Source: a bacterium (lineage in GTDB: Bacteria > SM23-31 > JAUVVT01). Taken from it: 33,971 bases of DNA. Below the pieces are notes generated by a model. That model ran no database searches and was not told the origin of the DNA. It saw nothing but the letters and a program-made list of their open reading frames with translations. This document shows, in pieces, positions 5,003 through 24,031 of this stretch. Both the position numbers and the translations under genes were made by a program. The first letter of the stretch is position 1. Every line of letters begins with the position of its first letter. Location of the stretch: assembly GCA_030616165.1 (NCBI GenBank), contig JAUWXV010000007.1:1-33971 (forward strand), written 5' to 3'.

Positions 5003-5086
5003 AATCAGACAGGATTGACTGACCAATTGTCTAAATTTTTGATGATAAAATTAATATAAAAAGTTTTACTTATTTTAGAGGTGAAA

Positions 5087-7765
5087 ATGCCAGAGAAAAA
5101 AGAAAAAAGAAATTTCAAGAAAATATTTACTCAACTCTCTATTGGTCTTTTGGTAAGTATCATTATAATTCTGTTTTCTCTAACCGGTCTTTATGAAACA
5201 ATAGAATTAAAACTCCTTGATGAGAGATTCAAGATAAGGGGACCTGTTTATATGAATCCTCGCATCTCTACTATTGATATAGATGGCTATACTCTTGGAA
5301 TTGAGGGAAGGTTCCAGGATTGGACAAGAGATAAGCATTATAAAATTGTTAAAATAGTGAATGAACTTGGTGCAGGGATGATAGGGTTTGACTTTTACTT
5401 TCCCGAGAAGAGTTCAAAAGTATTAAAAATTGAAGATGTTCCAGAAAAAGATATTAATAACAAAGATGACCTTTTAAACCTTTTTCAGGATTATGATAAG
5501 GAGATGTCTGAGACAATTAAAGAATCTGGGAATGTAATTCTTGGTCAAACCCTGAATGATAATGAACCTCCAAAGCCGGAGTTAATTCCTGAGGCTTTAA
5601 AAAGGCTTGCTCCATATTATATTGAATTTCCAGATTGGAACAAGTATAAGTTTGAGGTTAAATCAAACATAGAGCATCCCTTATTGGATTTTATCTCCAC
5701 TTCAAATGGTGTTGGGCTTGCAGAAACTTTTGCGGACATCGACGGTTCAGTGCGCAGATATCCATTGTTCAAGGTTTACGACGGAAAACTCTTTCCGGCA
5801 TTAGCATTAGTTATGTTCTGCGATTATATCGGTGTCAAAATTAAAGATATAAAAGTAATTCCCGGAGATAAAGTCGATATCCCTCCGGGTCATCTCCCTG
5901 ACGGTACACCTGTTGATATAGATATTCCAATTGATAACAAAGGAATGATGATGATGAATTGGGCTGGAAGTTACTGGGATGAAAATTTCCAGCATCTCCC
6001 GCACCTATCTATTTCTACATATTATGAACAAAGAAAAAGTGAAGTAATTGCAGAAAATATTAAGAAGATATTTAACAAAATCCCCGAATCTGTTAACAAC
6101 ACCGATATTTTAATTGAAGAACTTGAAAAAGCAGGAATTGAGATAACAGAACAGGTTGAATATGTTTATGGTGTTTTAAGTAATGGAGTATTATTTGATG
6201 AAGCTGTAAAAAATGGAGAAGAAGTACCAAAAGATTTAGTTCCACCTGATGTTTATCCAATTTATACTGAGATTCTTATAAATCATAAAATGTATGATTT
6301 ATTAAAGGAGAATTTGGAGATTTCTTATGAGGAAGCAAATGAGAAAATCGGAATTGATGATGAGGAAAAGGTACGTTTAAGTTATAAATTTATTAAGCAT
6401 AAACTTTCATCTGACGGAATAACGGAATTAGATTATCCGCTCTATTTTTTCCCGATTGAAATTGAAGGTAAATTAATAACTGATGATATGTTCAAAGATA
6501 AAATATTTTTCTATGGATTAACTGCAGCTGGAACGTGGGATTTAAATCCAATGCCTTATCTGGATAGATATCCTATGTTGGGACTTCACGCAAATGCCTT
6601 TAATACAATCCTTACTCAGAATTTTCTGAGAGAACTTTCAAATTGGTCAGTCATACTTATAATTTTGGGATTAGGTCTTCTGATGGGTTTAATAGTCCCG
6701 AGGCTCAGCCCGGTTAAGGGAGTAGTTATTGTTTTTGTTCTACTTGCTGGGTATCTCTTCACCGCACAGTATCTCTTCAACACAAAAGGAATTATTGTTG
6801 ATGTTCTTGGCTCGGTCACAACTCTTATTATCGGGTATCTGTCGGTTACTGTTTATAATTTCTTCTCAGAGGAAAAAGAAAAAAAGATGATTAGAGGAAT
6901 ATTCTCAAGGTATGTTACAAAGTCTGTTGTGGATGAACTAATAAAGAATCCTGATATGGTCAAACTTGGCGGAGAAAGAAAAATCCTAACCGTATTCTTT
7001 TCCGATGTAGCAGGATTTACTTCTGTTTCCGAAAAACTGACTCCTGAAGAACTTGTATCACTCCTTAATGAATATCTGACTGCGATGACGAATATCGTTC
7101 TAAAAAGTGATGGAATGATTGATAAATACGAAGGTGATGCGATAATGGCAGTTTTTGGCACACCGATTCCGATGCCAGACCACGCCACAAGGGCTTGTTA
7201 TGTTTCCCTTGAGATGCAGGAAAAACTTGTAGGAATGAGAGAAAAATGGCATCAGGAAGGTAGACCGGAATTAAAGGTAAGGATTGGGCTTAATACTGGT
7301 CCTATGATAGCCGGAAATATGGGTGCACAAGATAGACTTGACTATACTGTTATGGGGGACAGCGTTAACCTCGGTTCACGTCTGGAAGGGGCTAATAAAC
7401 AGTATGGTTCTTATATTATGATATCAGAATTCACCTATGAAATGGTAAAAAATGATATTGAAGCAAGATTCTTAGATTCTATCAGAGTTAAAGGCAAAAA
7501 ACTCCCTGTAAAGGTTTATGAAGTTCTTGAAAGAAAGGAAAAAGGGCTCCCTGAAAATAAAAAAAAGGTTATTGAAGCATATAATCAGGGAATGGAATGC
7601 TATCTCAAGCAGGACTGGAAAAAGGGAATTTTTTACTTTGAAAATGCACTCTCTAATGATTCGGAGGATGGACCTTCAAAGGTTTATCTTCAGAGATGTC
7701 AGGAATATACGATTAATCCTCCGGGTACAGACTGGGACGGAGTTTATACTATGACTACAAAATAA
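5087..7765 (+). CDS. CHASE2-type sensor adenylate/guanylate cyclase
   Basis: Extracellular CHASE2-like N-terminus, TM helices, class III cyclase domain 'VFFSDVAGFTSVSEKLTPEELVSLLNEYL...DKYEGDAIMAVFGTP'. Start at ATG 5087 preferred (AGAGGTG RBS) over GTG 5081. Confidence 0.85.
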   Translation: MPEKKEKRNFKKIFTQLSIGLLVSIIIILFSLTGLYETIELKLLDERFKIRGPVYMNPRISTIDIDGYTLGIEGRFQDWTRDKHYKIVKIVNELGAGMIGFDFYFPEKSSKVLKIEDVPEKDINNKDDLLNLFQDYDKEMSETIKESGNVILGQTLNDNEPPKPELIPEALKRLAPYYIEFPDWNKYKFEVKSNIEHPLLDFISTSNGVGLAETFADIDGSVRRYPLFKVYDGKLFPALALVMFCDYIGVKIKDIKVIPGDKVDIPPGHLPDGTPVDIDIPIDNKGMMMMNWAGSYWDENFQHLPHLSISTYYEQRKSEVIAENIKKIFNKIPESVNNTDILIEELEKAGIEITEQVEYVYGVLSNGVLFDEAVKNGEEVPKDLVPPDVYPIYTEILINHKMYDLLKENLEISYEEANEKIGIDDEEKVRLSYKFIKHKLSSDGITELDYPLYFFPIEIEGKLITDDMFKDKIFFYGLTAAGTWDLNPMPYLDRYPMLGLHANAFNTILTQNFLRELSNWSVILIILGLGLLMGLIVPRLSPVKGVVIVFVLLAGYLFTAQYLFNTKGIIVDVLGSVTTLIIGYLSVTVYNFFSEEKEKKMIRGIFSRYVTKSVVDELIKNPDMVKLGGERKILTVFFSDVAGFTSVSEKLTPEELVSLLNEYLTAMTNIVLKSDGMIDKYEGDAIMAVFGTPIPMPDHATRACYVSLEMQEKLVGMREKWHQEGRPELKVRIGLNTGPMIAGNMGAQDRLDYTVMGDSVNLGSRLEGANKQYGSYIMISEFTYEMVKNDIEARFLDSIRVKGKKLPVKVYEVLERKEKGLPENKKKVIEAYNQGMECYLKQDWKKGIFYFENALSNDSEDGPSKVYLQRCQEYTINPPGTDWDGVYTMTTK

Positions 7766-13226: not shown

Positions 13227-13300
13227 GGGCCCATAGCTCAGTTGGTTGGAGCAACTGACTCATAATCAGTAGGTCCGAGGTTCGAGTCCTCGTGGGCCCA
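13227..13300 (+). tRNA. tRNA with anticodon CAT (probably tRNA-Ile2 with lysidine-modified CAU; elongator Met not excluded)
   Basis: Complete cloverleaf: acceptor GGGCCCA/TGGGCCC, D-arm GCTC..GAGC, anticodon arm ACTGA-CTCATAA-TCAGT, T-arm CGAGG-TTCGAGT-CCTCG, discriminator A. Confidence 0.95.
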
Positions 13301-13302
13301 CA
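13255..13302. repeat. Left attachment-site direct repeat (inside the intact tRNA)
   Basis: ctgactcataatcagtaggtccgaggttcgagtcctcgtgggcccaca, identical to 17365-17412. Confidence 0.9.
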
Positions 13303-13331
13303 GTTAAAATATCAATAAAATCAATATATTA

Positions 13332-13416: not shown

Positions 13417-13491
13417 CGAAAATTTTTTTATTTTTATTTCGTATAAATCGATTTTTATTATTGTCAATTTAATTATTAGTTCAATTCATGT

Positions 13492-13785
13492 CCGGTTCCA
13501 AAATTATATGAAACTGAAAATATTCCAGCAAGAGATAAGATTATTTATGAGCATTTTTTTATTTTTATTTCAGATTGGTATATAGCAGAATATTGTACGA
13601 AAGATCTGATTATGTTTGGTTTTGCAATTTTAAATAATGATTATCAAAATGCTGAATGGGGATATATAGATTATAAGGAACTTAAGGATTTAAATATTAA
13701 TGGATTTGAGGTTGAAAGAGATATTAATTGGGAGCCTAAAAAAGCAGGTTTGGTTGAGAAGATTGTGAAAAGTGGGGGGATTTAA
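13492..13785 (+). pseudogene. 5'-truncated DUF2958-like mobile-element protein
   Basis: Open frame PVPKLYETENIPARDKIIYEHFFIFISDWYIAEYCTKDLIMFGFAILNNDYQNAEWGYIDYKELKDLNINGFEVERDINWEPKKAGLVEKIVKSGGI*, resembling the DUF2958 pattern (KLY..D..v..kFF..W.w...E.d..d..FG......eWGY.s..EL.....g..veRD..w.Pk); no plausible start codon. Confidence 0.55.
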
Positions 13786-13900
13786 TATTTTGCTTGAAAA
13801 GTTTTAAAATATATGTTATTATTTATATAATATTATTTTTAAAAGAATAATATAGTATCTAAACACAATCTTTAAATATCTAAAGAATTTTAAAAACAAT

Positions 13901-14380
13901 ATGAAAAATAATCAAATTGAGAAGAAAGTTGTTATATGTGGAAGTATGAGTTGTTTTGATAAAATGCTTGAATTAAAGAGAGAGTTAAATAGTTACAAAA
14001 TTAATACTGTAATACCAGAAGATGAAGCGAAATATGAAAGTATAAAAAATGGAGAACAATATTTTAAATTTAAAAGAAAAGTCTCTGAAGAATATTTTAA
14101 AAAAATAAGGAAAAAAGAGGTATTTGCAATTCTTGTAATAAATAAAGAAAAAAGAGGTATCCCAAATTATATAGGTGCAAATACTTTTGCAGAGATAGCA
14201 ATAGCAATAAATGCTAAAAAAAAGGTATATCTTTTAAATGATATTCCTGATACATATTATGATGAGTTAATATCTTGGGAAGTATTCCCGTTAAATAAAA
14301 ATTTAAACAAGTTGATTAAAGATTATAACGACTTGATAAATTATGAAAAAAATCAACTAAATCTAAAATTTGAGGAATGA
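13901..14380 (+). CDS. Nucleoside 2-deoxyribosyltransferase-like Rossmann-fold protein
   Basis: 'KVVICGSMSCFDKMLELKRELNSYKINTVIPEDE' N-terminal Rossmann motif, 'FAILVINKEKRGIPNYIGANTFAEIAIAINAKKKVYLLNDIPD' typical of the NDT-like family with a conserved Glu in NTFAE. Confidence 0.7.
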   Translation: MKNNQIEKKVVICGSMSCFDKMLELKRELNSYKINTVIPEDEAKYESIKNGEQYFKFKRKVSEEYFKKIRKKEVFAILVINKEKRGIPNYIGANTFAEIAIAINAKKKVYLLNDIPDTYYDELISWEVFPLNKNLNKLIKDYNDLINYEKNQLNLKFEE

Positions 14381-14389
14381 AGATAAACA

Positions 14390-15535
14390 GTGTTTGAAAC
14401 GCCTTCTAAAAAAGATATTTGTAATGGTAAAATTTCTGATCACTGCAACTTATTATCTTTGCTTACTTTGGAGAAGATCCATAAAGAAAATAGTATTATT
14501 TGCTTGGAAGCTCATGTAAGTAATTTCCCTAATGAAATAGAAAAAGCACATTTTTTTGGATTGCATGACTTTATAAGATTGCTGAAAGGGAAAGATGTTC
14601 AAGTATATAGTATTGAACCGGGACATGAATTTTTTGAAAACGAGCCAGTAATTAATTTAATAGGTTATGCAAAAGATTTAGCAATGATTAAATCAACTTT
14701 AACAGGTATACTAGCATTTCATTCCACCGTAGTTACAAAATGTGCACACTTGAAAAAAATAGCTGGAAATAAACCTATTTATTTTTTTGGATTAAGAAAA
14801 TTGCATCCATCCCATATTATGCAGTATTTAGAAGCTACTTACGCTGGTGGTTTTGAAATTAATGCCACAGATTTAGCAAAACAAATTGATCCTAATTTAG
14901 AAATATCTGATTGTCAAGAGCATGTATCTAATATTATAGCTGATGATTTAATCGAAAGTTGGAGAGCTTTTATCAAAATCTCTGAACAATATGGTGGAAT
15001 ATATATTGTTTTGGATAATTTCTCTGATACAGTAACAGAAGCAAAATTTGCCATAGAAAAATTTAAACATGAAATAAAAGGATTCTTAGTAGATACTAGT
15101 AGAACAAGAAGAGGAGATATAGTTCAGATATTAAAAGAATTAAAATGGTATTTAAATCTTTATAGTAAAAAAGAAGTTAAAATCGGATTAACAGGTGGTG
15201 TTGATTCCAATATAATAAAAAATACTAAGGATATATTATCAAGTTTTGGAGTGGGGCTAAATATTGTAAGTGGTTATATATTTGATTTCTCATTTCAAAT
15301 AGTTGAAGTTGATTCAAAACCAAAATCTAAAATAGGCGTTTTCCCAGGTAGAAAGAACGTTTACTATTGTAAAAATTGTGGTAAAAGAGATGTAGACATT
15401 GATAGAGATGTTTATAAAAAAATGTGTTGTAATAATGAAATGGAAAAATTATTAAAAATAGTAGACCTAACTTCAACTAAGGAAAATATAGATTATATTA
15501 TGGAGTCACGTAATTATATACTATCATTGGTTTAA
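14390..15535 (+). CDS. Divergent nicotinate phosphoribosyltransferase-like protein with C-terminal Cys cluster
   Basis: NAPRTase-like signatures: 'STVVTKCAHLKKIAGNKPIYFFGLRKLHPSHIMQYLEATYAGGFE', 'GFLVDTSRTRRGDIVQILKELKWYLNLYSKKEVKIGLTGGVDSNII', 'FGVGLNIVSGYIFDFSFQIVEVDSKPKSKIGVFPGRKNVYYCKNCGKRD'. GTG start. Confidence 0.75.
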   Translation: MFETPSKKDICNGKISDHCNLLSLLTLEKIHKENSIICLEAHVSNFPNEIEKAHFFGLHDFIRLLKGKDVQVYSIEPGHEFFENEPVINLIGYAKDLAMIKSTLTGILAFHSTVVTKCAHLKKIAGNKPIYFFGLRKLHPSHIMQYLEATYAGGFEINATDLAKQIDPNLEISDCQEHVSNIIADDLIESWRAFIKISEQYGGIYIVLDNFSDTVTEAKFAIEKFKHEIKGFLVDTSRTRRGDIVQILKELKWYLNLYSKKEVKIGLTGGVDSNIIKNTKDILSSFGVGLNIVSGYIFDFSFQIVEVDSKPKSKIGVFPGRKNVYYCKNCGKRDVDIDRDVYKKMCCNNEMEKLLKIVDLTSTKENIDYIMESRNYILSLV

Positions 15536-15539
15536 TTAT

Positions 15540-17117
15540 ATGGATAATCCTATAAAAAAAGTATTCTTACATTATTTAGATAATGCAGTGATAGACCAAT
15601 ATGAACTTACTAAAAGATATAAAGAAGAAAAAATTATCGATGATTTTATATTAGCTACAAGAATTGCATTTTTATTGGTTGAAGAATATTTAATTATTCC
15701 AAATTCATTTTATTTTGAAAATAAAATAGCTTATGAAGTTATAAACAAATTAAAAGAAATTTTTAATGTTGATTTAATAAGATTTTCAGGAAAAGAACCA
15801 GACCCATATGATTATTTAGAAAAAAAGAGAGTACAATTTAGTAATAAGAAAGACAAATATCCGGGATATTATTCTAAAAAGATTTTTAGAAAATATTTAG
15901 ATCTTGAAGCCTCTTTATTAATAAGAAGAAAATATTTCAATATTGGAGAGTCAACAAGTGCTAAATGGATAGAAGACATAGAAAAAAATGAAAAAGAATG
16001 GATAACAAATATTATTATTAAAAACGGTAATATTGACCTTATAAAAGAATTAATTGAATTACCTTTAAAGCTTGAAGATAAACCCGTCTTGTGGGACTTT
16101 CTTATTGATTGTATACCTTCTCCTATATCATACAAGAATTCTAAATTTTTTATTCAGGATAAAATTAATTCATTTTATGCTGAATTATATTTAAATGAAT
16201 ACGATGCATATATTATAGGTGATTTCCCCAAATATGATTTAAGAATAGGGATTAATAAGTTTGAGTATAAAACTATTTCTCTATCAAAAATAATCAGAAG
16301 GCTGAGAAGATATGGAATATATGATATTATAAAAAATTCGTTGTTAGATAGACTAATTAAACTAAAATTTACAATAGGTGGAAGTTGGTTACTAGTAGAA
16401 CAAAATCCAAAACATTTACAAGTATTAATAGATTGCATAAATGAAATAATTAAAAGAGGTGTAATACCAAAAAAATGCTATCTATTAGCGTATGGCTTTG
16501 AGAAAATAAAAGAAAAAACTTATAAGGAAAAAAGAACAATGAAGATTGATATTTTTAAAGCATTAATAGAAGCATTTATAGTTGCAGTTGGGCCTGCTGC
16601 TGCACCAGTAAAGTTTTTATCAGAAATTAGAGACCAGCTAAAACAACAAGAGCAACATAATGTTGACCTAAGTATTGTAGCAATAAATGAAACTATTGTT
16701 AAAGAGAATAAACTGAATTTAAATCGGGAAGAGATACTATGGATTGAAAAATTAATTCAACCGCTTATTTCAGCAGATATGATAATAGATGAAGATAGCA
16801 TAAAAAGAGCTATCATAAAAGTCTCCGAAAATACATATGAATATGTCTTCAGTAACTATAGATTAATATTGGGCAAGTTAAGCGAGTATTATCCTGACAG
16901 ACGTGATATAATAACATTAATACGAAAAATTGGAATAAATGAGGGGCAAATTGAACTTGAAGGATCTTCAGAGTATATATGGAGTAATTTGTTAAAATAT
17001 TTAAAAGGAAATGATAAAATCATTACGTTGTTATTATTACTCGAAGTATCATCTCAAAAATCCGGAGAGAATGCATTTACTAAGCCTTTTAATAGATTTA
17101 AAAAATTGGATAATTAA
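15540..17117 (+). CDS. Protein of unknown function with putative C-terminal Effector-Associated Domain 1 (EAD1)-like module
   Basis: C-terminus 'YRLILGKLSEYYPDRRDIITLIRKIGINEGQIELEGSSEYIWSNLLKYLKGNDKIITLLLLLE' matches the EAD1 pattern (L..lYp.....r..i...Gi....i...gs....W..il..a.......Ll); follows gene B by 4 nt. Confidence 0.6.
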   Translation: MDNPIKKVFLHYLDNAVIDQYELTKRYKEEKIIDDFILATRIAFLLVEEYLIIPNSFYFENKIAYEVINKLKEIFNVDLIRFSGKEPDPYDYLEKKRVQFSNKKDKYPGYYSKKIFRKYLDLEASLLIRRKYFNIGESTSAKWIEDIEKNEKEWITNIIIKNGNIDLIKELIELPLKLEDKPVLWDFLIDCIPSPISYKNSKFFIQDKINSFYAELYLNEYDAYIIGDFPKYDLRIGINKFEYKTISLSKIIRRLRRYGIYDIIKNSLLDRLIKLKFTIGGSWLLVEQNPKHLQVLIDCINEIIKRGVIPKKCYLLAYGFEKIKEKTYKEKRTMKIDIFKALIEAFIVAVGPAAAPVKFLSEIRDQLKQQEQHNVDLSIVAINETIVKENKLNLNREEILWIEKLIQPLISADMIIDEDSIKRAIIKVSENTYEYVFSNYRLILGKLSEYYPDRRDIITLIRKIGINEGQIELEGSSEYIWSNLLKYLKGNDKIITLLLLLEVSSQKSGENAFTKPFNRFKKLDN

Positions 17118-17147: not shown

Positions 17148-17279
17148 ATGGAATGTATTGATTTGTCAACTGTTCAAGAATTACTAGGACATGCATCTCC
17201 TGAAACAACAAGGAAACATTATGCAAACTTAGCAGATGAACATTTACAAAAATATGTTAAGAAATTGCCTTATAAATAA
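17148..17279 (+). pseudogene. C-terminal remnant of a tyrosine recombinase (integrase)
   Basis: Reads MECIDLSTVQELLGHASPETTRKHYANLADEHLQKYVKKLPYK*, the LGH...TT..hYa box with nucleophilic Tyr; upstream frame is stopped. Confidence 0.8.
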
Positions 17280-17283
17280 AAAT

Positions 17284-17300: not shown

Positions 17301-17364
17301 AAAAGATATATTCTTGTCTAATATATATGATTAAATAACAAAGATATATGTGTTATGTAAGCAT

Positions 17365-17412
17365 CTGACTCATAATCAGTAGGTCCGAGGTTCGAGTCCT
17401 CGTGGGCCCACA
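17365..17412. repeat. Right attachment-site direct repeat (tRNA 3' fragment)
   Basis: Exact copy of 13255-13302 without the 5' half of the tRNA. Confidence 0.9.
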
Positions 17413-17699
17413 AGTAAAAACAAGAACTTATATCATATTTCTGACACAAAAGTCAGTTGTTCTCTATCCGGAACTTGCCGAATCTTGTCATTCTTGTGGC
17501 AAAATTTGTGTTTTTCTTCAACACTATTATATATACTCTTAAAATATAATTAAATATTCAACCTTTTTCAAGTAAAAATGTAAAAAATCTTTTAAAATGT
17601 ATTTTTACTTCAATTAAATATAGGGTCAGAAAAATGCCTGCACACTGTGTTCTGCCCTTTTTTATATTTTCAATCTCTTTATATTTCAACCAAATGTAG

Positions 17700-18445: not shown

Positions 18446-19330
18446 ATGTATTCTTGGATAAAAAAAACAAATAAAATAATCGTTTTATTAGCAATAATTT
18501 ATTTATTGTTTTTAAAGACAGTTATTGCTGCAGAATTGAGTCCTGCTGTAGGAACCAATGGCACTTTCAATATACCTGATTACAGTGCAAAGGAAGATGG
18601 TGTTCAATTGTATACACAGGCTGTAAAATGGGTTAATAAGATGAAGAAGGTTAATTCGGCAGCACAGGAAGAGAGCCAGGCTGTGCTCAGGCAGCACGCC
18701 GATGAGTCAGCATTCCTAATCCTGCAGAAGGCAGTGAAAGAGGAGGACGAAGAAGGATTTGTACCTCTTTTCAATGGTAAAGACCTCAGCGGTTGGACAG
18801 GCGATACCATAAGCTACGTTGCTGAAAACGGAAAAATCGTTGTATACCCCAGGCGTGGTAGTGGTGGAAACCTGTATACGGAAAAGGAATACAGCAACTT
18901 TATACTGCGTTTTGAATTCAAACTCACGCCCGGTGCCAACAATGGACTGGGGATTCGCGCCCCTCTGTCAGGCGATGCGGCGTATGTGGGAATGGAGCTT
19001 CAGATACTTGACAACACCGCTGATAGATATAAGAACCTCAGACCGTATCAGTTTCACGGTTCTATCTACGGCGTCGTCCCGGCGAAACGAGGATACCTTA
19101 AGCCTGTCGGTGAATGGAATTTCGAGGAAGTCATCGCAAACGGCCCTCAGATTACCATCAAACTCAACGGTGTTACGATAGTTGACGCTGACATTGACAA
19201 AGCCAGTACACCTGAGACGATGGATGGAAGAAAGCACCCGGGATTAAAGCGAGACAAAGGTCATATAGGATTCCTTGGCCATGGCTCCAATCTTGAGTTC
19301 CGTAATATCAGGATTAAGGAATTAAAATAA
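18446..19330 (+). CDS. DUF1080 / 3-keto-disaccharide hydrolase family protein, exported
   Basis: 'FVPLFNGKDLSGWTGD...NFILRFEFKLTPGANNGLGIRAPL...GMELQILDN...GSIYGVVPAKRGYLKPVGEWNFEEVIANGPQITIKLNGVTIVDADI...KGHIGFLGHGSNLEFRNIRIKEL' is the classical DUF1080 pattern; signal peptide. Confidence 0.9.
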   Translation: MYSWIKKTNKIIVLLAIIYLLFLKTVIAAELSPAVGTNGTFNIPDYSAKEDGVQLYTQAVKWVNKMKKVNSAAQEESQAVLRQHADESAFLILQKAVKEEDEEGFVPLFNGKDLSGWTGDTISYVAENGKIVVYPRRGSGGNLYTEKEYSNFILRFEFKLTPGANNGLGIRAPLSGDAAYVGMELQILDNTADRYKNLRPYQFHGSIYGVVPAKRGYLKPVGEWNFEEVIANGPQITIKLNGVTIVDADIDKASTPETMDGRKHPGLKRDKGHIGFLGHGSNLEFRNIRIKELK

Positions 19331-19503
19331 AGTTAAATAATTAGCATTAAATCAAAAACAAGCGTTCACATACTCAGGCATACATTCGCAAATTACCTCG
19401 TAATGACTGAAGTTGATATTTATACAGATTCCAAATTATTTTTAACTTTTGACTGAATTTGTAATAACAATTATTGAAATTAATAAGACATAGAGGTTTA
19501 AAT

Positions 19504-20511
19504 ATGGATTATGTTTTACCAGACAAGTATAAACTGACAGAAGACTTTTTAAAACTTACCGAAGAAAAAACAAAATCAGGCGGCATCGGTATAATAATGC
19601 CCGGAGGAAAAGGGCATATCCCGGTATTATATGCAAAAGGGAAATGTCTTCCTGAGGCATGGGAGAATTCAATTATTGCACTATGGGCACACGGAACATT
19701 ATTAAAAACGCAATATGATAAAAAGGAAGACCCTCCGAGCAAAGACGCCGCAATGATAATGGTTATTGAAGACCCTTTATCAGAGCCGATGATTCACCTG
19801 TCATTTCCTGGAGGAGTCGAAGACCTGGAAGAATACCGACAGGAAGTTGTCGAAGGGACAAAGAACCACTGGATAAGAGACCCTGACAATCCAGAAGATA
19901 CGCGGTGGGAATATACCTATAATGAAAGAATGACTGGTTATAAAGTGCCGGGATTAGAAAAGCCGATAAACCAATTAGAAGAGATGGCACAAGCATTGGC
20001 AGATGTTCCCATAACGCGAAGAGCGCAAATAATAACATGGCAGCCGTGGATGGATAACGGCATAGACGACCCCGCCTGCTGGCAGTCACTGTGGGGAAGA
20101 ATCATGAGAGACAGTTCCGGAGCAGAACTGTATTCAGACGAGACAGGACAGGCACATCTCAATTTAAACATGAGATTCAGAAGCAGGGATGCCTATAAGG
20201 CAGCATTTATGAATGACTTTGCATTTATCCACCTCGCAAAAAACTTGACAGACAGAATATCTGAACTTAGAGGAGAAGAAATCAAACTCGGAAGGTTTGT
20301 AGATCAGTCAGACTCTTATCATATATACGGCAGTTATTTTGATGAATTTTCAAACCACTTTCTCAAACTATTATTTGCAAGAACCTTTGAAAAGAGAACA
20401 TGGAGACTGGATGCAGAGTTCGTTCAGGACATAATTGCTGAAGCAAAACCAAAAATTAAGGAGAAAATAGCAAATCAAGATGCAAAATATGCAAAATTCA
20501 AGCAAATATAA
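19504..20511 (+). CDS. Thymidylate synthase-fold protein (ThyA / dCMP hydroxymethylase superfamily)
   Basis: 'RRAQIITWQPWMDNGIDDPACWQSLWGRI...LNLNMRFRSRDAYKAAFMNDFAFIHLAKNLTDRISELRGEEIKLGRFVDQSDSYHIYGSYFDEF' keeps the TS-like Cys, RS.D, N and D.HIY motifs; ATG 19504 preferred. Confidence 0.7.
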   Translation: MDYVLPDKYKLTEDFLKLTEEKTKSGGIGIIMPGGKGHIPVLYAKGKCLPEAWENSIIALWAHGTLLKTQYDKKEDPPSKDAAMIMVIEDPLSEPMIHLSFPGGVEDLEEYRQEVVEGTKNHWIRDPDNPEDTRWEYTYNERMTGYKVPGLEKPINQLEEMAQALADVPITRRAQIITWQPWMDNGIDDPACWQSLWGRIMRDSSGAELYSDETGQAHLNLNMRFRSRDAYKAAFMNDFAFIHLAKNLTDRISELRGEEIKLGRFVDQSDSYHIYGSYFDEFSNHFLKLLFARTFEKRTWRLDAEFVQDIIAEAKPKIKEKIANQDAKYAKFKQI

Positions 20512-21086: not shown

Positions 21087-22430
21087 ATGGAATCAATAAA
21101 TCGACGGGGGTTTTTAAAAAAATCTACAGTTGCCGCTGCAGGTATGATTGTGGCTGCTCCTGCAATAAAAAAAGGTTGGGCAAAGAACAGTCCTAATGAA
21201 ACAATTAACATTGCGGTCACAGGTATTCGGAGTCGGGGCAGAAGTCACTATAGAACCTTCGCCGCACTCCCTGATGTTAATGTTATAGCAATTTGTGATA
21301 TTGATGAGAGACTATTCCCCAAAGCAGTGGAATCGATAGAAAAAATGAGCGGCAAAAAACCGAAGACTTATGTGGATTTTCGGAAGATGCTCAATGATAG
21401 AGATATTGACGCTGTTTCGATTGCGACTCCCGACCACTGGCATGCGTTACAGACTATATGGGCATGTCAGGCAGGTAAGGACGTATATGTAGAAAAACCG
21501 GTTTCATATACGGTAGATGAAGGTCGAAAAGCGGTTCAGGCGGCCAGAAAATATAATCGCATTGTTCAAGCAGGTACACAGGGCAGAAGCAATAGGGTTA
21601 ACATTGAGGCTGTGAAACTTCTGCATGATGGTTATATAGGGGATGTTTACATGGCTAAAGGGCTTTGTTTCAAGCCTCGAGACAGTATAGGGCGTGTAAA
21701 GAATAGTCCAATTCCTGAGGGAGTTCATTGGGACATCTTTCTTGGTCCTGCACCATATCGTCCATTCAATGAAAACAGATTTCATTATAACTGGCATTGG
21801 TTCTGGGATACCGGAACTACAGATATGGGAAATCAGGGTATTCACCAGATGGATGCGGCACGATGGGGTATAAATAAACGTGTTCATCCCATTAGAATTC
21901 ATGGTACAGGAAACTATTATACATTTGATTCTGACCAGGAAACTCCCAATACTCAGATTACTACCTTTGAATATGAAGATGGCAAAATATTGCAGTTTGA
22001 AGTCCGCGGTTTATACACAAATGCTGAAGATGGTATCACGATAGGTAATCTATTCTTTGGTTCGGAAGGATGGATGCATTTTGCAAATGGTCAATTTAAA
22101 ACATATTTCGGGCGGAAAAATGAACCCGGTAAAAGTATGTCAAGGAAAGACCTTGCATCCGACCCAATGGACCTTGCAGGTCCGGTAGGTGACCCACATT
22201 TTAGTAATTTCATTGATTGCGTGAGGTCCCGAAAAATGGAGGACCTTAAATCGGATATCTTAGAGGGACACATGTCAACTGCTCTCTGTCATCTTGGTAA
22301 TGTTTCATACCGTACCGGACGAAAACTCATGTTTAATCCCTATGCTGAAAAATTCATCGATGATGACGATGCAAATTCATACCTGAAGCGAGTTTACCGT
22401 CATCCTTATGCGGCGCCCGATGAAGTATAA
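21087..22430 (+). CDS. Tat-exported Gfo/Idh/MocA family oxidoreductase, copy 1
   Basis: Twin-arginine 'NRRGFLKKSTVAAAGMIVAAPAIKKGWA', Rossmann 'INIAVTGIRSRGRSHYR', 'DVYVEKPVSYTVDEGRKAVQAARKYNRIVQAGTQGRS' (EKP motif). Confidence 0.9.
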   Translation: MESINRRGFLKKSTVAAAGMIVAAPAIKKGWAKNSPNETINIAVTGIRSRGRSHYRTFAALPDVNVIAICDIDERLFPKAVESIEKMSGKKPKTYVDFRKMLNDRDIDAVSIATPDHWHALQTIWACQAGKDVYVEKPVSYTVDEGRKAVQAARKYNRIVQAGTQGRSNRVNIEAVKLLHDGYIGDVYMAKGLCFKPRDSIGRVKNSPIPEGVHWDIFLGPAPYRPFNENRFHYNWHWFWDTGTTDMGNQGIHQMDAARWGINKRVHPIRIHGTGNYYTFDSDQETPNTQITTFEYEDGKILQFEVRGLYTNAEDGITIGNLFFGSEGWMHFANGQFKTYFGRKNEPGKSMSRKDLASDPMDLAGPVGDPHFSNFIDCVRSRKMEDLKSDILEGHMSTALCHLGNVSYRTGRKLMFNPYAEKFIDDDDANSYLKRVYRHPYAAPDEV

Positions 22431-22657: not shown

Positions 22658-24031
22658 ATGGAATCAATAAATCGCCGAGGATTTTTAAAGAAATCCGCAG
22701 TTGCCGCTGCAGGTATGGTAGTTGCCGCTCCTGCGATAAAAAAGGGTTGGGCAAAGAACAGTCCAAATGAAACTATCAATATTGCTGTTACAGGTATCCG
22801 CAGTAGAGGTGGGGCTCATATTCGAAGCTTTTGTGGAATTCCGAATGTAACAGTCACTGCAATTTGTGATATTGATGAGAACCTGTTTCCTGAATCTGTG
22901 GCGCGAATAGAAAAATTGACCGGTAAAAAGCCAAAGACATATGTGGATTTTCGGAAAATGCTTGAGGATAAGGACATAGATGCAGTTTCGATTGCAACAC
23001 CCGACCACTGGCATGCATTACAGACTATCTGGGCTTGTCAGGCAGGCAAGGACGTATATGTAGAAAAACCGGTCTCATATACGGTTGATGAAGGTCGTAA
23101 GGCGGTTCAGGCAGCGAGAAAATATAACCGTGTTGTTCAAGCAGGTATGCAGAATCGAAGCAGTCAATCAGTCAGAGCGGCTATGAAGTTTCTTCATGAT
23201 GGAAACTTGGGTGAGATATATATGGCAAAAGGGCTTTGTTATAAACCGCGAGCAAGCATTGGCCACAAAAAAGACAGTCCAATCCCGAAGGGAGTCAATT
23301 GGGACCTATTTCTTGGACCCGCACCTTACCGTCCTTTTAATGAAAACAGGTTTCATTACAACTGGCATTGGTTCTGGGACACTGGTACAACAGACATGGG
23401 TAATCAGGGTATTCATGAAATGGATAAAGCCAGATGGGGTCTGAATAAGCGTGTTCATCCTGTGAGAATTCACGGTACCGGGCATTATTATGTCTGGGAT
23501 TCCGACCAGGAGACACCAAATGTACAACATGCTACTTTTGAATATGAAGATGGAAAGGTACTGCAATTTGAAGTCCGCGGCTTATTTACTAATGATGAAG
23601 GCGGCGAAACAATCGGTAATCTTTATTACGGTTCTAAAGGATGGATGACTTCGGCTGGAGATTTCCAAACCAATATTAGTGAAATTGTTTTACGACCGGA
23701 TGGATTTTCTAGATACGAGGAAAAACCTGGCCCTAACTTCTCTAAAGGAGCAATTAAAGATGACCCTTTGAACCTTGTGGGAACGGTAGGAGGCGGTCAC
23801 TGGGAAAACTTTATTGATTGTATGAGGTCAAGACGATGGCAGGACTTAAATGGTGATATATTAGAAGGACATATGTCAACCTCCCTTTGTCATTTGGGTA
23901 ATATAGCATGTAGATTAAGAAGAACACTCATCTTCAATCCATATTCGGAAAAGTTCGTTAATGATGATGACGCAAACTCATACCTGAAGAGAGTTTACCG
24001 TCATCCTTATGCAGTCCCCGATGAAGTATAG
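22658..24031 (+). CDS. Tat-exported Gfo/Idh/MocA family oxidoreductase, copy 2 (tandem paralogue)
   Basis: Nearly identical signal peptide and co-linear with 21087-22430; shared C-terminus 'DDDANSYLKRVYRHPYAxPDEV'. Confidence 0.9.
   Translation: MESINRRGFLKKSAVAAAGMVVAAPAIKKGWAKNSPNETINIAVTGIRSRGGAHIRSFCGIPNVTVTAICDIDENLFPESVARIEKLTGKKPKTYVDFRKMLEDKDIDAVSIATPDHWHALQTIWACQAGKDVYVEKPVSYTVDEGRKAVQAARKYNRVVQAGMQNRSSQSVRAAMKFLHDGNLGEIYMAKGLCYKPRASIGHKKDSPIPKGVNWDLFLGPAPYRPFNENRFHYNWHWFWDTGTTDMGNQGIHEMDKARWGLNKRVHPVRIHGTGHYYVWDSDQETPNVQHATFEYEDGKVLQFEVRGLFTNDEGGETIGNLYYGSKGWMTSAGDFQTNISEIVLRPDGFSRYEEKPGPNFSKGAIKDDPLNLVGTVGGGHWENFIDCMRSRRWQDLNGDILEGHMSTSLCHLGNIACRLRRTLIFNPYSEKFVNDDDANSYLKRVYRHPYAVPDEV

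What the first reader, a model, noticed from the sequence alone, without database searches (positions are those of the whole stretch)
14390..15535. NAPRTase-like protein with eroded substrate motifs but retained DT..RRGD and Cys cluster
The fold-level signatures of NAPRTases are present: FGLRKLHP, GFLVDTSRTRRGDI, GLTGGVDSNII and a C-terminal CKNCGKRD..CC. Several motifs I recall as canonical look altered: the TD.YF.R-type N-terminal motif reads SDHCNLLS, DGxS reads EINATD, and GT.xH reads DCQEH (His kept). A mobile, diverged NAPRTase might be a sensor or use a different base or acceptor.
Basis: partly seen in the sequence, partly recalled or inferred. Interest (0 to 1): 0.6.

Follow-up and report, generated by a model that had tools for sequence, protein, structure and literature searches.

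The report
Island-borne, off-consensus nicotinate-phosphoribosyltransferase relative
A small foreign DNA island inserted at a tRNA gene carries three tightly packed genes, the middle one a very divergent relative of a vitamin-B3 salvage enzyme that has lost key catalytic residues and so probably binds or acts on something else, perhaps in a defence or nucleotide-handling role.

Summary
The ORF at 14390-15535 is an archaeal-type nicotinate phosphoribosyltransferase (NAPRTase) homologue: about 30% identical to its nearest relatives, and below the curated NAPRTase cut-off (223 vs 243 bits). It has lost 33 of 78 columns that are at least 90% conserved in 35 ordinary relatives; the worst ordinary relative lost 20 of 83. 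H178, R136, RRG and the glycine motifs are kept. Its tree branch is 5.8 against a median of 0.52. No other NAPRTase was found in the 90%-complete genome; nadA and nadC are present. The gene is in a 4.1-kb AT-rich island bounded by a repeat of a tRNA-Met 3' end, with integrase and DUF2958 remnants, between a deoxyribosyltransferase-like gene and an orphan. No close relative turned up. Most likely it is cargo that binds a phosphoribosyl compound as sensor or altered transferase; a defence role is untested. Losses are not concentrated at the active site (13/31 vs 20/47), so general rapid divergence remains a live rival.

The parts
13227..13301 (+). tRNA-Met (CAT), intact; chromosomal attachment site, left end of island
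   Evidence: ARAGORN
13250..13309 (+). left direct repeat (attL-like): 3' part of the tRNA
   Evidence: 95% to the right copy; the 48-nt core occurs exactly twice in the genome, here and at 17365
13490..13786 (+). N-terminally truncated DUF2958-like remnant (mobile-element gene), no start codon seen
   Evidence: sequence; PF11171 E=0.012, below its cut-off, (weak)
13901..14380 (+). ORF1, 159 aa, nucleoside 2-deoxyribosyltransferase-like small protein; Glu of TFAEI invariant in 4 relatives
   Evidence: a relative hits PF05014 at E=0.024, so the fold assignment is tentative
14390..15535 (+). ORF2, 381 aa, off-consensus archaeal-type NAPRTase homologue
15540..17117 (+). ORF3, 525 aa orphan, no confident family, no homologue found
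17148..17280 (+). C-terminal remnant of a tyrosine recombinase (LLGHASPETTRKHYANL)
   Evidence: PF00589 E=1.8e-5 matching the C-terminal end of the profile; translation
17360..17419 (+). right direct repeat (attR-like) of the tRNA-Met 3' end

Best explanation
Shown: a three-gene, tightly spaced cassette (gaps of 9 and 4 nt) sits as cargo in a small, partly decayed integrative element at tRNA-Met, and its middle gene encodes a NAPRTase homologue that lacks the base-stacking Tyr and the core catalytic Arg. Inferred: the protein folds as a NAPRTase-like dimer, keeps the phosphoribosyl/phosphate side of the pocket (R136, H178, GG153-154, RRG, GG269-270, GVG287-289) but not the nicotinate side. It therefore binds a different phosphoribosyl or nucleotide ligand, either as a ligand-gated partner (sensor) of ORF1/ORF3 or as a transferase with a changed base. 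ORF1, if it is a true deoxyribosyltransferase-like glycosidase, would act on N-glycosidic bonds of nucleotides, so the cassette would handle or sense nucleotides or NAD, most plausibly as host-conflict (defence) or accessory cargo.
For: Homology. Residue loss with leave-one-out control. Arg equivalence: E. faecalis H205 and R262 (VRIDS) read off the numbered alignment of 2f7f, residue roles from PMC4442680; in phage Namat R306A cuts activity about 11-fold and the Gly mutant abolishes it (PMC12774641). Isolation. De novo NAD synthesis present (nadC, nadA), so the gene need not serve NAD supply. Island. The three cargo ORFs are intact with coding-like GC by codon position, while int and DUF2958 are broken.
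Against: No ligand, activity or phenotype is known. Losses are not concentrated at the active site, which fits plain rapid divergence as well as retargeting. Human R318A and Y21A kept about half of activity with ATP (PMC4442680), so neither loss alone proves inactivity. ORF1 function is only weakly assigned. No PADLOC hit, and no second copy of the cassette was found to show that the three genes travel together.
Confidence: 0.45

Rival explanations
1. It is still a working NAPRTase (or nicotinamide PRTase), merely fast-evolving after transfer, giving the host a salvage route it otherwise lacks.
For: Catalytic His and the FGxR Arg are kept; it is the only NAPRTase found in the genome; ATP can partly rescue Tyr and Arg mutants of the human enzyme.
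Against: Tyr, Phe and Arg of TDxYFxR, GTMP and the core Arg are all lost together, whereas every ordinary archaeal-type homologue examined keeps the equivalents of positions 19, 20, 22 and 233. Even the substrate-switched phage enzyme Namat keeps the core Arg.
Confidence: 0.2
2. Relaxed selection: a captured NAPRTase drifting toward non-function in a decaying element.
For: Integrase and DUF2958 in the same island are already truncated; losses fall evenly over motif and non-motif columns; branch length 5.8.
Against: No stop or frameshift in 381 codons, operon spacing intact, in-frame codon signal intact; 45 of 78 conserved columns kept, including most glycine and phosphate-loop motifs.
Confidence: 0.2
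3. NAD+-reconstitution or anti-defence enzyme in the manner of phage NARP (Nampt/Namat), with a changed donor.
For: Same enzyme superfamily; carried on a mobile element; Namat shows the fold can take ADP-ribose pyrophosphate (PMC12774641).
Against: Namat keeps the Nampt catalytic core; this protein does not. No Adps-like (PRPP-synthetase-like) partner was recognised in the cassette.
Confidence: 0.08

Closest known systems
Archaeal-type NAPRTase (PRK08662 / NF006415; PDB 2i14, 1ytd)
   Same: Same length, collinear motifs, FGxRxxHP, DT..RRG, GG.D, FGVG, catalytic-loop His, C-terminal Cys cluster
   Different: Below curated cut-off; lost TDxYFxR, GTMP, the R of RxDT, ET, the T of GVGT; 26-33% identity to the archaeal-type relatives found
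Namat/Nampt of phage NARP1
   Same: Type II PRTase fold, mobile-element context
   Different: Namat keeps the catalytic core Arg and changes the pocket entrance; here the core is changed and no Adps partner was recognised
Nucleoside 2-deoxyribosyltransferase superfamily (PF05014), for ORF1
   Same: N-terminal CGSM and a conserved Glu before a helix; relatives 32-41% identical
   Different: Does not reach the Pfam cut-off; no structural confirmation
tRNA-integrated small genomic islands/satellites
   Same: tRNA 3'-end repeat, tyrosine recombinase, AT-rich cargo
   Different: Integrase reduced to a C-terminal remnant; cargo genes not matched to any described system

Membership tests
NAPRTase (NF006415/PRK08662 equivalog) | score at or above the curated cut-off | tested here: not met
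   223.1 vs 243 bits
NAPRTase (NF006415/PRK08662 equivalog) | base-stacking Tyr of TDxYF | tested here: not met
   C19; Tyr in all 35 relatives
NAPRTase (NF006415/PRK08662 equivalog) | core Arg of RxD[ST] (human R318, E. faecalis R262) | tested here: not met
   L233; Arg in all 35 relatives; role from PMC4442680
NAPRTase (NF006415/PRK08662 equivalog) | catalytic-loop His | tested here: met
   H178; the preceding GTMP is lost
NAPRTase (NF006415/PRK08662 equivalog) | FGxR Arg (human R171, E. faecalis R163) | tested here: met
   R136
NAPRTase (NF006415/PRK08662 equivalog) | C-terminal four-Cys cluster | tested here: inconclusive
   C327, C330, C346, C347; second pair is CC instead of CxC/CxxC
NAPRTase (NF006415/PRK08662 equivalog) | PRPP + nicotinate turnover | not testable with these tools
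   needs an assay
Nampt/Namat | core Arg (Namat R306, human Nampt R311) | tested here: not met
   L233 by the family alignment; role
Nucleoside deoxyribosyltransferase (ORF1) | Pfam PF05014 match | tested here: not met
   no hit for ORF1; a relative at E=0.024
Nucleoside deoxyribosyltransferase (ORF1) | conserved catalytic Glu | tested here: inconclusive
   E98 invariant in 4 sequences; role not shown
tRNA-integrated mobile element | direct repeat of the tRNA 3' end at the far side | tested here: met
tRNA-integrated mobile element | intact integrase | tested here: not met
   only about the last 43 aa remain
Known anti-phage defence system | PADLOC family match for any of the three genes | tested here: not met
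   no hit

The most novel reading that the evidence does not exclude
A new three-gene nucleotide- or NAD-centred conflict system in which a NAPRTase-fold protein has been turned from an enzyme into a sensor (or into a transferase for another base), working with a deoxyribosyltransferase-like effector and an orphan partner.
Probability: 0.13. Interest if true: 0.75.

Novelty: new variant of a known kind. Interest (0 to 1): 0.4.

Why it matters
Type II phosphoribosyltransferases are known as enzymes, and even the Namat enzymes recruited to phage-host NAD conflict keep their catalytic core. A mobile member without the core Arg and stacking Tyr would be a test case for a pseudo-enzyme or retargeted pocket in this fold, and would point to NAD or nucleotide sensing as island cargo. 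At present it is one sequence without close relatives.

Tried and rejected
Relatives: single-protein, alignment and steered core-motif scans of viral contigs and genome contigs gave none; the steered queries used rows altered by hand or masked with X, only to choose the scan patterns. Pattern scans can miss relatives that share none of the exact 8-mers. tblastn of plasmids and phages gave only distant NAPRTases. 386 genomes gave none closer than 32-33% identity. ORF1 as a linkage marker: relatives in Rhizobium and two genomes stand alone, without an adjacent NAPRTase-like gene. AlphaFold without an alignment failed (mean pLDDT 38 and 33), so no fold search was run. Promoter matches are at chance level. 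'Selective loss of the active site' was considered and rejected. An empty-site comparison was not possible: the relatives' dnaG contigs are too distant or short.

Full report
Observation. The ORF at 14390-15535 exists as described. It matches the archaeal-type NAPRTase model NF006415 with E=4.8e-66, but at 223 bits against a cut-off of 243. The best solved relatives are 2i14 (E=1.4e-44) and 1ytd.

How far it departs. I aligned it with 33 relatives from other genomes plus 2i14 and 1ytd. Of 78 columns at least 90% conserved in these, the window protein departs at 33. In a leave-one-out control the worst ordinary member departs at 20 of 83, the next at 15 of 81, and most at 6 or fewer. The residues Y, F, R, E, T, G, T, P and R at window positions 19, 20, 22, 101, 102, 174, 175, 177 and 233 are 100% conserved in the others and are C, N, L, K, S, D, C, E and L here.

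Active site. The paper on human NAPRTase lists Y21, H213, R318, S214, K396, R171 and L170 as active-site residues, equivalent to E. faecalis Y17, H205, R262, S206, K333, R163 and T162 (PMC4442680). In the numbered phmmer alignment to E. faecalis 2f7f, chain residues 201-205 are GTHAH and 261-265 are VRIDS, so H205 and R262 are identified directly. phmmer itself slides this stretch, because most archaeal-type enzymes carry an insertion after RxDT; the family alignment, in which L010, L036 and L039 read RLDTK, RLDSK and RIDTK without the insertion, places the Arg opposite window L233. So H178 and R136 are kept, and the stacking Tyr (C19) and core Arg (L233) are lost. [quoted passage not shown] In phage Namat the equivalent R306A drops activity about 11-fold and the Gly mutant abolishes it (PMC12774641). 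Caution: in human NAPRTase, R318A and Y21A lose all activity without ATP but only about half with ATP.

Phylogeny. In a maximum-likelihood tree of 42 proteins the window has an end branch of 5.8 changes per column against a median of 0.52, belongs to no supported group, and has at most 30% identity to any row. Its exact position is therefore not resolved.

Is the loss targeted? No. Among conserved columns, 13 of 31 in ligand-motif segments and 20 of 47 elsewhere are lost (Fisher p=1.0; segment limits are mine). The pattern is general rapid divergence, within which the nicotinate-facing residues went and the phosphoribosyl-facing glycine and RRG motifs mostly stayed. This keeps relaxed selection alive as a rival.

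Genome. No second NAPRTase was found with the protein or with TIGR01513 (that model rang in 8 of 14 control genomes, so it is a fair but not perfect detector), in an assembly 90% complete. nadC (C227) and nadA (C200) are present, so NAD can be made de novo.

Island. tRNA-Met lies at 13227-13301. Its 3' 53 nt recur at 17360-17412 with one mismatch, as part of a 60-nt repeat at 95%; the 48-nt core occurs exactly twice in the genome. GC in between is 24-29%, against mostly 31-43% elsewhere in the window apart from one other dip to 25% at 26-27 kb, and third-position GC of the three ORFs is 0.16-0.17 against 0.26-0.45 for five neighbouring genes. Next to the right repeat is the C-terminal end of a tyrosine recombinase (PF00589, E=1.8e-5), and next to the left a truncated DUF2958-like stretch (E=0.012, weak). 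The three cargo ORFs follow each other with gaps of 9 and 4 nt and are intact.

Neighbours. ORF1 (159 aa) has relatives at 32-41% identity in a Rhizobium plasmid and two genomes, all standing alone. Its Glu98 is invariant in the four, and one relative touches Nuc_deoxyrib_tr at E=0.024. I call it deoxyribosyltransferase-like as a lead, not as a test. ORF3 (525 aa) found no convincing match in Pfam, NCBIfam, PADLOC, PHROGs, PDB, phages, plasmids or 386 genomes. It has one borderline hydrophobic stretch near residue 342.

Mechanism. From the anatomy, the most likely role is a cassette that senses or processes a nucleotide. ORF2 would bind a phosphoribosyl compound in a remodelled pocket, ORF1 would act on an N-glycosidic bond, and ORF3 is the unknown partner. 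Defence is a reasonable guess for short island cargo, but no match to any described defence gene was found and there is no phenotype. All functional steps are inferred.

Verdict. It is a new variant of a known fold, found once, in mobile context, with function open.

Noticed in passing
19474-20511 (+): 345-aa ORF with a sub-threshold match to thymidylate synthase (PF00303, E=0.0013, 18.4 vs 24.3 bits), next to sugar-related genes.
   Followed up: no
21087-22430 and 22658-24031 (+): Two tandem, closely similar proteins with twin-arginine-like N-termini that look like Gfo/Idh oxidoreductases (from sequence, not searched), beside a 3-keto-disaccharide hydrolase (18446-19330): apparent recent duplication.
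   Followed up: no
5081-7765 (+): 894-aa protein that from its sequence looks like a CHASE2-type sensor joined to an adenylate/guanylate cyclase domain; not searched.
   Followed up: no
L051 and L052: ORF1 relatives sit beside a glutathione-S-transferase-like gene and Nudix-like genes (named from sequence), with an ordinary TDLYELTM-type NAPRTase about 4 kb away, in two genomes of one family: possible loose link of this small family to nucleotide or NAD metabolism.
   Followed up: partly
15540-17117 (+): 525-aa orphan protein with no detectable homologue in any collection searched.
   Followed up: partly
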